Shown here one piece after another: positions 35,779 to 38,776 of a DNA stretch of 40,510 nt. Both the position numbers and the translations under genes were made by a program. This DNA is from Bacillota bacterium (GTDB lineage Bacteria; Bacillota; Sulfobacillia; Sulfobacillales; Sulfobacillaceae), in the NCBI GenBank assembly GCA_021792935.1, contig JAJYTS010000007.1, forward strand, positions 1 through 40,510, given 5' to 3'. Position 1 is the stretch's first letter, and each line of letters begins with the position of its first letter. The notes under the pieces were generated by a model. The model saw nothing but the letters and a program-made list of their open reading frames with translations, ran no database searches and was not told the DNA's origin.

Positions 35779-35814
35779 CAAATTGATAAAAGGAAGCCCG
35801 ATCGGGTTTGTGTA

Positions 35815-36051
35815 GTATTGCCGGAGTGGGAATTAGACTTGCGCCAAATTAGTTGGCGTGCCCAAATCCGGCTCCGTGACCATCTGCGCCGCCTCGGGGC
35901 AAAACGGCGCTATCACGCGTCTTATATGGCCGTCGGGCATGAACTTCGCGGCGATATCTGAGACGTCGCAGTCTGGGTCCCAGCCACGCTCGCGGTCCAA
36001 CGACGCATCATCGATCCCACCGCACGCGAGGCGACCATCCTCGCTCAGTAA
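35815..36051 (+). pseudogene. Possible transposase C-terminal remnant (IS110-like?)
   Basis: Reading frame VLPEWELDLRQISWRAQIRLRDHLRRLGAKRRYHASYMAVGHELRGDI*DVAVWVPATLAVQRRIIDPTAREATILAQ* with one internal TGA; resemblance from memory only. Confidence 0.35.
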
Positions 36052-36539
36052 TCAATCTCCGCACGGTATCGAGCCTAATTTGTGCACCCGGTGCATGCGG
36101 CGTAAGAACGGAAGCGGGAGAGTCCTCGTGAACTTGCCATGCGTGAAGACCCCCGGTCGAGCACGCACCTATCTAGTGAGACATCTCCCCTCGGATTGGC
36201 GAACTTGCGGTTATGCTCTCCTTCGAGAGCCACCAGCTCGCGTACACGAGAATGAACCGCCGTCGCCTCAACAATCCGTCACAGGATTCCCCAAGGACCA
36301 GCGACCCCGTCCCGCCTGGGCCAGAATAGGCCAACTCAGACCTCGGACCTCGTCAAGGTTTCCCTCCGGCGGCTACGCCGACCTTGATGACCGACCTTGC
36401 ATAGCAAAAAAGTAGGCTATCTAGGTTGGTGTCTTCGCACGAGCAAACCGCATAAGTAGAGGGCTACGCAACTTTTAAGCAACATGCTTGGTTATGCTGG
36501 TCACCATGGCGCGATTTGTCATGGAGCAAAACGGGTAGC

Positions 36540-36615
36540 GTTAGGGCGGCACCGAGAATGATGGGGAAAGGCTAGTGCGCCGCTAGATGAGGTGGGTTAA
36601 GAATCCCACCCTTTA
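36540..36615 (+). mobile_element. Possible IS200/IS605-type right-end remnant
   Basis: GATGAGGTGGGTTAAGAATCCCACCCTTTAG; GGTGGG/CCCACC hairpin at 36591-36610, reminiscent of IS605-family right ends; no tnpB recognisable upstream. Confidence 0.3.
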
Positions 36616-37030
36616 GCACTGGTTGACCAACAAAGACTGGCGCCAATATGTTCGCCAATAAAGAAGCCATAACAAAGAGAGAAGGCGCCCAGCATGAATC
36701 ATTATTGGTTGGCATTCCCACACGAGACGGTCAGATAGTGATTTATGACGTGTTTGAACTCTTTACCCTCGACAAGGTATTTGGGCGACTATTGCGCTTT
36801 TTAATCGGGGAGGCGGGCAATATTCCCAAAAGTCGTAATCTGGACACACTCTGAACCAAGAACGTTGCCGCCAGCTCCAACCGATTAGTTAATCAGAATC
36901 ACCCGTTTTCTGAACGACAAATGGTCTTGTAATGCATACATGCGTGTCAACAAGGTGGCATCGACGCACTTTGCCGATCACAAATGTAATTTTTCGATCC
37001 TCAAATCTCGTCGCTGTGCATAGCCGAAAA

Positions 37031-38087
37031 TCAAACTACAGTTCTACCTTCTGTGGCCCATAGCAAATCCCTGAAAACCAACACAGTTGCCCGCCGACCG
37101 CTACCCGGTATAAGTTGCGTTACTACGTTTTGCTCCTTTAACGCGGTAAGAAGTCTACGGGCTGTTGCCCCAGGGATTCCAGAACCTCGAATAAAATCTG
37201 AACTACTAAATACGGGCTTGGAAAAAATCCATTCCAATGCGCGAACAGCATATTGCGATCGGGTCGACTCTGGAATACTTAACTTCAGACTCTGGTAGAG
37301 ATCTTGAATTTGGATCACTTTAGCCAGATTATCCTCTGCCTGTGACCGTACACCCTCCAAAAAAAACCGGGACCACCCTACCCAGTCGTGATCACGTGAA
37401 ACGGCAAGAAGACGTTCGTAGTATTCTTCCCTACGCGCCTCGAAGAATGCGCTAATGTAAAACATCGGCCTCTGTATAATACCAGCTTGCCACAAAAAAA
37501 GTGGTACCAGCATGCAAAATGGCCATCTGCACAAGCCTGTCCATGAACTCTGAGTGTACAAATTTTTCCCAATCACTCATCGCATCGGGAAGTAGCTCCG
37601 CACTGATTGGCACGAAAGTTGCCTCATCTATCGAACACCCTGGCGGGCCAATCCAATTTTGAATTCGCCGGTATTCCCCGGGACTCTTGGATCGTCCCCT
37701 GACGTCCGACATCAAAACTTCATGGGCTTTGCGAATGAGTCGTTGCGATAATGGGATACTAGCCAAAAGTCCCTCGGCTTCATGCATAGCCGCACGATAA
37801 TTCAGCACCTCAAAAATGTCATTTCGACGTTCTGGAGACGAGGCCTCACGGACTGCTTCGAATTCAAGGACCTCGCCAAGCGTCGCTTGGGTTCCCTCGA
37901 TTCGCGAAGACAAAACAGCTTCTCGGGTGATCAAAGGAGCCAGCAAGAGATCCGGGCTAGGTATGGAGGACAACATGCCATCGTACCGCGCAACGGCCGC
38001 GTAAGCTGGCCCAATCAAGGGAATCAGACTTTCCCATGCCAAAGATTCGGGGGGGAATCGCCCCGTATGATATCTTACAGACGGCAT
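37031..38087 (-). pseudogene. Fic/DOC family protein, disrupted: deletion of catalytic motif plus frameshift
   Basis: Two overlapping frames: 37452-38087 (VLSSRIEGTQATLGEVLEFEA...GEYRRIQNWIGPPG...FVPISAELLPDAMSDWEKFVHS...LVQMAILHA) continues in the other frame as LVPLFLWQAGIIQRPMFYISAFFEARREEYYERLLAVSRDHDWVGWSRFFLEGV; HPFxDGNGRxGR absent. Confidence 0.9.
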
Positions 38088-38776
38088 CCCGCACCTCCAT
38101 TACACCACACCACACGGTGGCATATAGACTCAACTCGAACCACCACCACCGTAATGTGGAACATAAATGCAGTATACACAAAAAAACATTCCTTCTTTGA
38201 AAGCCTGCCATGAAGTGGTGAACTCAAGCTGATTTCATGATGTCCGCACCGCGTCTTAGGTCCCCTAACCGATCGGGAGCGTATATGATTTGAAAAAAGT
38301 TGCGACACTCAAGAGACGAAACGACATAAACCGCATGGAGTTGAGGCCCTTGAGGGCCACTCCCGGCTTGCGTTGGAGAGAGTGCGACTCGGCTTTGACA
38401 CAGTGGATGAAGCAGTCTGTCCCAATTGTTGATCCAGGAAAGAGCCGAAAAAATGCCGAGGAGATAACCGAGGTTACCTCAGCGGAAATACTTCTATGCG
38501 GCGCAAATCGCGCCCACCTTGGCTATGAAGCCGTAACTATGCTGCCCGAATGTTTAATGGCCAAGTGAAGCAGCGTCCACCTGGCGCAATAATTCAATCC
38601 GTTGAACGATAATCACCCCGCGAATAATGGAACTACCCGCATGTATCCTAGCGGATTCAGGCGTCGAACAGGCTCCGTCGCCTCTTTCGGATTTCATCGC
38701 ATACGGATAAAACTCTTAACAAACTCTAAAGCGACAACAACCATGATTAATATACGGAGCGAAAGGAGATTCCGGT

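What the first reader, a model, noticed from the sequence alone, without database searches (positions are those of the whole stretch)
37500..37520. Fic gene with its catalytic motif apparently excised at a GCATGC junction
Seen: frame 1 ends ...DRLVQMAILHA and frame 2 resumes LVPLFLWQAGIIQRPMFYISAFFEARREEYYERLL. In intact Fic proteins the segment between is about QFExIHPFxDGNGRxGRL. That segment is missing, so the HPFx(D/E)GNGRxGR motif is lost along with a frame change. The codon phase implies a deletion of length 2 mod 3 (about 56 nt if spacing was standard). The join falls in GCATGC, which can encode both (L)HA and (G)RML, suggesting microhomology-mediated deletion (inference). The N-terminal (S/T)xxxE(G/N) inhibitory motif (SSRIEG) is retained. 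Precise loss of the AMPylation motif suggests selection against activity, or decay.
Basis: partly seen in the sequence, partly recalled or inferred. Interest (0 to 1): 0.6.

Follow-up and report, generated by a model that had tools for sequence, protein, structure and literature searches.

The report
Fic toxin gene broken by deletion
A bacterial gene for a SoFic-like AMP-transferring defence protein has lost 56 bases that encode its catalytic motif, which leaves a freshly broken gene; this is an ordinary loss-of-function event and not a new mechanism.

Summary
A SoFic-like Fic gene lies on the minus strand (38087 to 37031). All homologue loci compared keep the catalytic stretch; in the closest ones (L024-L061) and in G088 exactly 57 nt lie between two fixed residues. 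The window has 1 nt there, so 56 nt are missing, the whole HPFx(D/E)GNGRxGR motif is gone and the frame is shifted. The two halves carry no other stop or frameshift and keep all 62 residues invariant in kin, so the lesion is young or an artefact. No reads or sister strain were available. The gene is a horizontal arrival: no close copy in seven genus-mates, best match a Deferrisomatales genome. In its nearest kin fic sits inside type III restriction-modification operons; other relatives sit beside type I or IIG genes. The window copy has no such partners. 'Selection against activity' is not shown: a random 56-nt deletion removes the whole motif 2.8% of the time, and other relatives are broken elsewhere. 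Best reading: a recent microhomology deletion in an orphan defence gene.

The parts
37031..38087 (-). broken fic gene (SoFic-like, class II Fic), full extent of the two pieces
   Evidence: both pieces match the SoFic profiles and the same intact homologues
37515..38087 (-). N-terminal piece in native frame (residues 1-191; HA follows): Fic_N domain, inhibitory helix, first part of the Fic core
   Evidence: Fic_N E 1e-25; 70-76% identity to L024-L027 over 1-191
37893..37910 (-). SSRIEG, N-terminal inhibitory motif (S/T)xxxE(G/N)
   Evidence: read in sequence; SSRIEG or SSKIEG also in the intact homologues
37510..37515 (.). deletion junction GCATGC; 56 nt missing relative to homologues; ATGC (37510-37513, minus strand) is the certain microhomology
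   Evidence: gap 57 nt in homologues versus 1 nt here
37452..37509 (-). out-of-frame tail (18 aa) and stop that now end the N-terminal reading frame
   Evidence: ORF 37452-38087, 211 aa
37031..37513 (-). C-terminal piece in the shifted frame: end of the Fic core and the C-terminal domain; an ATG at the junction opens this frame
   Evidence: matches SoFic 207-338 and PDB 9vjc, 3eqx, 3zcn

Best explanation
A horizontally acquired SoFic-like Fic gene, of a kind that in its nearest relatives belongs to a restriction-modification defence operon, was recently inactivated by one 56-nt deletion between short direct repeats (at least ATGC, perhaps GCATGC or longer), by replication slippage or end joining. 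Shown: the exact missing length, the loss of the catalytic motif, the frameshift, otherwise intact and conserved flanking halves, the absence of R-M partner genes beside it, and no close copy in the genus. Inferred: the deletion mechanism, that the gene was functional until then, and that it is now simply a null allele (a young pseudogene) with no AMPylation activity.
For: 57-nt spacing in the close loci and in G088 versus 1 nt here. Junction bases encode both homologue contexts. Microhomology of at least 4 nt expected in 1.6% of positions and at least 6 nt in 0.15%. 41/41 and 21/21 invariant residues kept outside the deletion, and pN/pS about 0.2 against L024, so long constraint came before the lesion. 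Fic profiles split cleanly around the gap. Four other homologues are broken at other places, so breakage is common in the family. SoFic needs active-site residues and its C-terminal domain for toxicity (PMC12249575), so this allele should be dead twice over.
Against: No read data and no second genome of the species, so the deletion is not proven to exist in the cell. The window branch is long in the tree (0.44 against 0.043 for its sister), which could also reflect some relaxed constraint before or after the lesion. A perfectly preserved remainder is also what an assembly or amplification error would give.
Confidence: 0.8

Rival explanations
1. The deletion is not in the cell: a chimera made during amplification (for instance multiple displacement amplification of a single cell, which joins templates at short homologies) or an assembly error.
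For: Incomplete draft genome (59.7% complete, 141 contigs). Short homology at the junction fits template switching. The rest of the gene is perfectly conserved.
Against: The repeat is far shorter than any assembly k-mer, so repeat collapse is unlikely, and a chimera would have to win the consensus. The ribosomal-protein genes in the same contig are long open frames. Whether the genome is a single-cell one is unknown.
Confidence: 0.13
2. The loss was favoured by selection: an orphan Fic toxin without its restriction-modification partners was harmful, and the allele without the catalytic motif was kept. (This is a cause for the deletion being kept and is compatible with the best explanation.)
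For: Nearest kin are embedded in type III R-M operons and the window copy is an orphan. Wild-type SoFic is toxic in E. coli (PMC12249575).
Against: Many intact homologues also lack these type III neighbours. A random 56-nt deletion removes the whole motif in 2.8% of cases, any frameshift would do as well, and there is one event only. The inhibitory motif is intact.
Confidence: 0.15
3. The pieces are still made and serve a new, non-catalytic role (for example the N-terminal dimerising part or the C-terminal domain as a regulator); the junction ATG opens the C-terminal frame.
For: Both frames are open and conserved, and an ATG lies at the junction. Fic proteins with altered motifs can keep effects (Fic2 of Campylobacter fetus, PMC5651007).
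Against: The only purine-rich ribosome-binding-like stretch seen (ggaggtgcggg) lies before the native start, none before the junction ATG. The conservation is equally explained by recency. No relative shows the same split.
Confidence: 0.03

Closest known systems
SoFic (Shewanella oneidensis SO_4266; PDB 3EQX, 3ZCN) and E. coli Sofic (PDB 9VJC), class II Fic adenylyltransferases and anti-phage proteins
   Same: N-terminal inhibitory motif, Fic_N domain, Fic core and C-terminal domain; both pieces match by profile and by sequence
   Different: The window copy lacks the whole catalytic motif and is frameshifted; PADLOC names it SoFic, but it is far below the NCBIfam cut-off for SoFic proper (550 bits), as is intact L024 (156.6 bits)
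Fic genes embedded in type III Mod-Res operons (L024-L029, L031 and others)
   Same: Closest sequence relatives; L024 is sister in the tree (99/98)
   Different: Those are flanked by a type III methyltransferase (mod stop and fic start overlap in several) and a Res gene; the window copy has neither

Membership tests
Fic domain, PF02661 | Sequence match above the family cut-off | tested here: not met
   N piece 19.4 bits against a cut-off of 24; the match stops where the deletion begins
Fic AMPylator | HxFx(D/E)GN(G/K)R motif | tested here: not met
   Absent; 56 nt missing relative to the homologues
Class II Fic (Fic_N, N-terminal inhibitory helix) | Fic_N domain and (S/T)xxxE(G/N) motif before the core | tested here: met
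   Fic_N 90 bits, E 1e-25; SSRIEG at 37893-37910
SoFic (PADLOC PDLC03963) | Profile match over the whole length | tested here: met
   Two pieces, E 1.4e-50 and 2e-36, covering 10-188 and 206-355 of 361; gap at the motif
Pseudogene | Inactivating lesion relative to intact homologues | tested here: met
Pseudogene | Lesion present in the organism and not only in the assembly | not testable with these tools
   No reads, and one genome per species only
Microhomology-mediated deletion | Direct repeats at both breakpoints in the ancestor | tested here: inconclusive

The most novel reading that the evidence does not exclude
A SoFic-like protein stripped of its catalytic motif is kept as two non-catalytic pieces that act as a regulator or decoy in phage defence.
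Probability: 0.03. Interest if true: 0.6.

Novelty: new member of a known kind. Interest (0 to 1): 0.13.

Why it matters
It is a clean example of a defence toxin gene dying by one small deletion, and a caution for annotation: profile tools still call both halves SoFic although no catalyst remains. The side observation, SoFic-like genes embedded in restriction-modification operons of three types, is the part that may deserve work of its own.

Tried and rejected
Natively motif-less homologues: none found. A second copy of the gene or of its flanks in the same genome: none. Remnants of the methyltransferase or Res gene beside the window fic: none, and no Mod elsewhere in the incomplete genome. 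Mobile-element remnants in the non-coding flanks 35782-37030 and 38088-38776: no Pfam match and no plasmid match for the two longest pieces tried. Empty-site synteny in the genus: the ABC pair next door is conserved in genus-mates, but nothing beyond it aligns at this locus, so the insertion site could not be defined. dN/dS proper: synonymous sites are saturated, only pS and pN given. Viral contigs: no relative.

Full report
What is there. The minus strand from 38087 to 37031 holds a Fic-family gene in two frames. The N piece carries a Fic_N domain (Pfam E 1e-25) and only the first 70 of 93 positions of the Fic domain, below that family's cut-off. The C piece matches the end of the SoFic profiles and of solved SoFic structures. 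On the PADLOC SoFic profile the pieces cover 10-188 and 206-355 of 361; the uncovered part is the catalytic motif.

Size of the deletion. A scan of 84,980 species genomes gave 39 homologues. In the close ones (L024-L061, 54-76% identity over the N piece) 57 nt lie between the two residues that in the window are separated by a single nucleotide, and the 57 nt encode HAEFEALHPFLDGNGRLGR or a close variant. An intact copy in another family of the same class (G088, 69% and 61% identity to the two halves) shows the same. The deletion is therefore 56 nt. More distant relatives (24-47% identity) also keep the motif.

Junction. GCATGC at 37510-37515 reads as the end of LHA in the first frame and the start of (R)ML in the second, and the homologues have LHA and GRML at these places. 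ATGC is shared on protein grounds alone. Extension to GCATGC or further depends on third-codon bases of the lost segment that cannot be known from relatives only 68-69% identical in DNA. A 56-nt deletion at a random place in the window has at least 4 nt of homology in 1.6% of cases and at least 6 nt in 0.15%. Slippage or end joining at microhomology is the natural mechanism, though not proven.

Age. Outside the deletion the two halves have no other stop or frameshift, and keep 41 of 41 and 21 of 21 residues that are invariant in the other 35 aligned homologues (the one N-side 'loss' listed there, a final H, is a boundary effect of where the piece was cut). Against L024 pS is 0.87-0.90 and pN 0.18-0.23, so the gene evolved under constraint for most of its history. 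With no loss at 62 invariant codons, I estimate (own arithmetic, about 140 nonsynonymous positions) at most some 0.02 neutral changes per site since the lesion. The lesion is young, or it is an artefact. The window branch is ten times longer than its sister's; the conserved sites show that this is mostly change at tolerant sites.

Origin and surroundings. None of seven genus-mates has a close copy. The tree puts the window next to a Deferrisomatales sequence (99/98) among copies from many phyla, so the family moves between phyla. In L024-L029, L031, L053, L056, L057 and L061 fic lies between a type III methyltransferase and a type III Res gene; in several of them the mod stop and the fic start overlap. 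Other homologues sit beside type IIG enzymes (L037, L048, L060) or type I methyltransferase and specificity genes (L041, L045). The window copy stands alone between an ABC transporter pair and a thiamine-pyrophosphate enzyme, with no remnant of a methyltransferase or Res gene in the window and no such methyltransferase in the 59.7%-complete genome.

Function. Fic proteins of this class transfer AMP with the HxFx(D/E)GNGRxxR motif and are held in check by the N-terminal glutamate of the inhibitory helix (PMC3667792). E. coli Sofic is toxic, acts in abortive infection, and loses toxicity when active-site residues or the C-terminal domain are lost (PMC12249575). The window allele lacks the motif and cannot join its C-terminal domain in frame, so I conclude that it is null.

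Selection or chance. A random 56-nt deletion in an intact homologue removes the whole core motif in 2.8% of positions and touches it in 7.8%; of possible 10-200-nt deletions with at least 5 nt of microhomology, 6-8% remove it. Other relatives are broken elsewhere: L008 has a TAG in frame before the core, L051 an in-frame stop in the C-terminal domain, L061 a frameshift at the inhibitory motif, and L049 a stop near the aligned start together with D to A in the motif. These are draft genomes and some may be errors. Loss of this gene is common, and nothing in the present case singles out the motif.

Verdict. The explanation is an ordinary recent deletion in a horizontally acquired defence gene, with an amplification or assembly artefact as the main rival. 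Interest is low.

Noticed in passing
L024:2795-10522; also L025-L029, L031, L053, L056, L057, L061: SoFic-like fic sits inside a type III restriction-modification operon (mod-fic-res; in several loci the mod stop overlaps the fic start). Other relatives sit beside type IIG (L037, L048, L060) or type I genes (L041, L045). A literature search for Fic with type III restriction-modification and AMPylation returned no paper. Could be a back-up toxin guarding R-M systems.
   Followed up: partly
L061:5405-5440: Homologue with a frameshift at the inhibitory motif SSRIEG; might be an error or a broken copy.
   Followed up: partly
L049:6001-7104: Homologue with HPFLAGNGR (motif acid changed to A) and a stop near the aligned start; a later start may exist.
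   Followed up: no
L025, L026, L028, L111, just downstream of fic: Short similar stretch (MSDK or MSDN) between fic and the next gene in several loci; could be a short peptide or a DNA element (compare the 47-aa antitoxin AS1 downstream of E. coli Sofic).
   Followed up: no
window 35782-37030 and 38088-38776: Long stretches without a recognisable gene flank the broken fic on both sides; no repeat in the genome, no Pfam match.
   Followed up: partly
G000:C111:5405-5653 (L001): An intact small Fic/Doc-type protein (130-aa frame, HPFQDGNKR) elsewhere in the same genome; contig C66 holds another Fic-family hit (30.7 bits, L002).
   Followed up: partly
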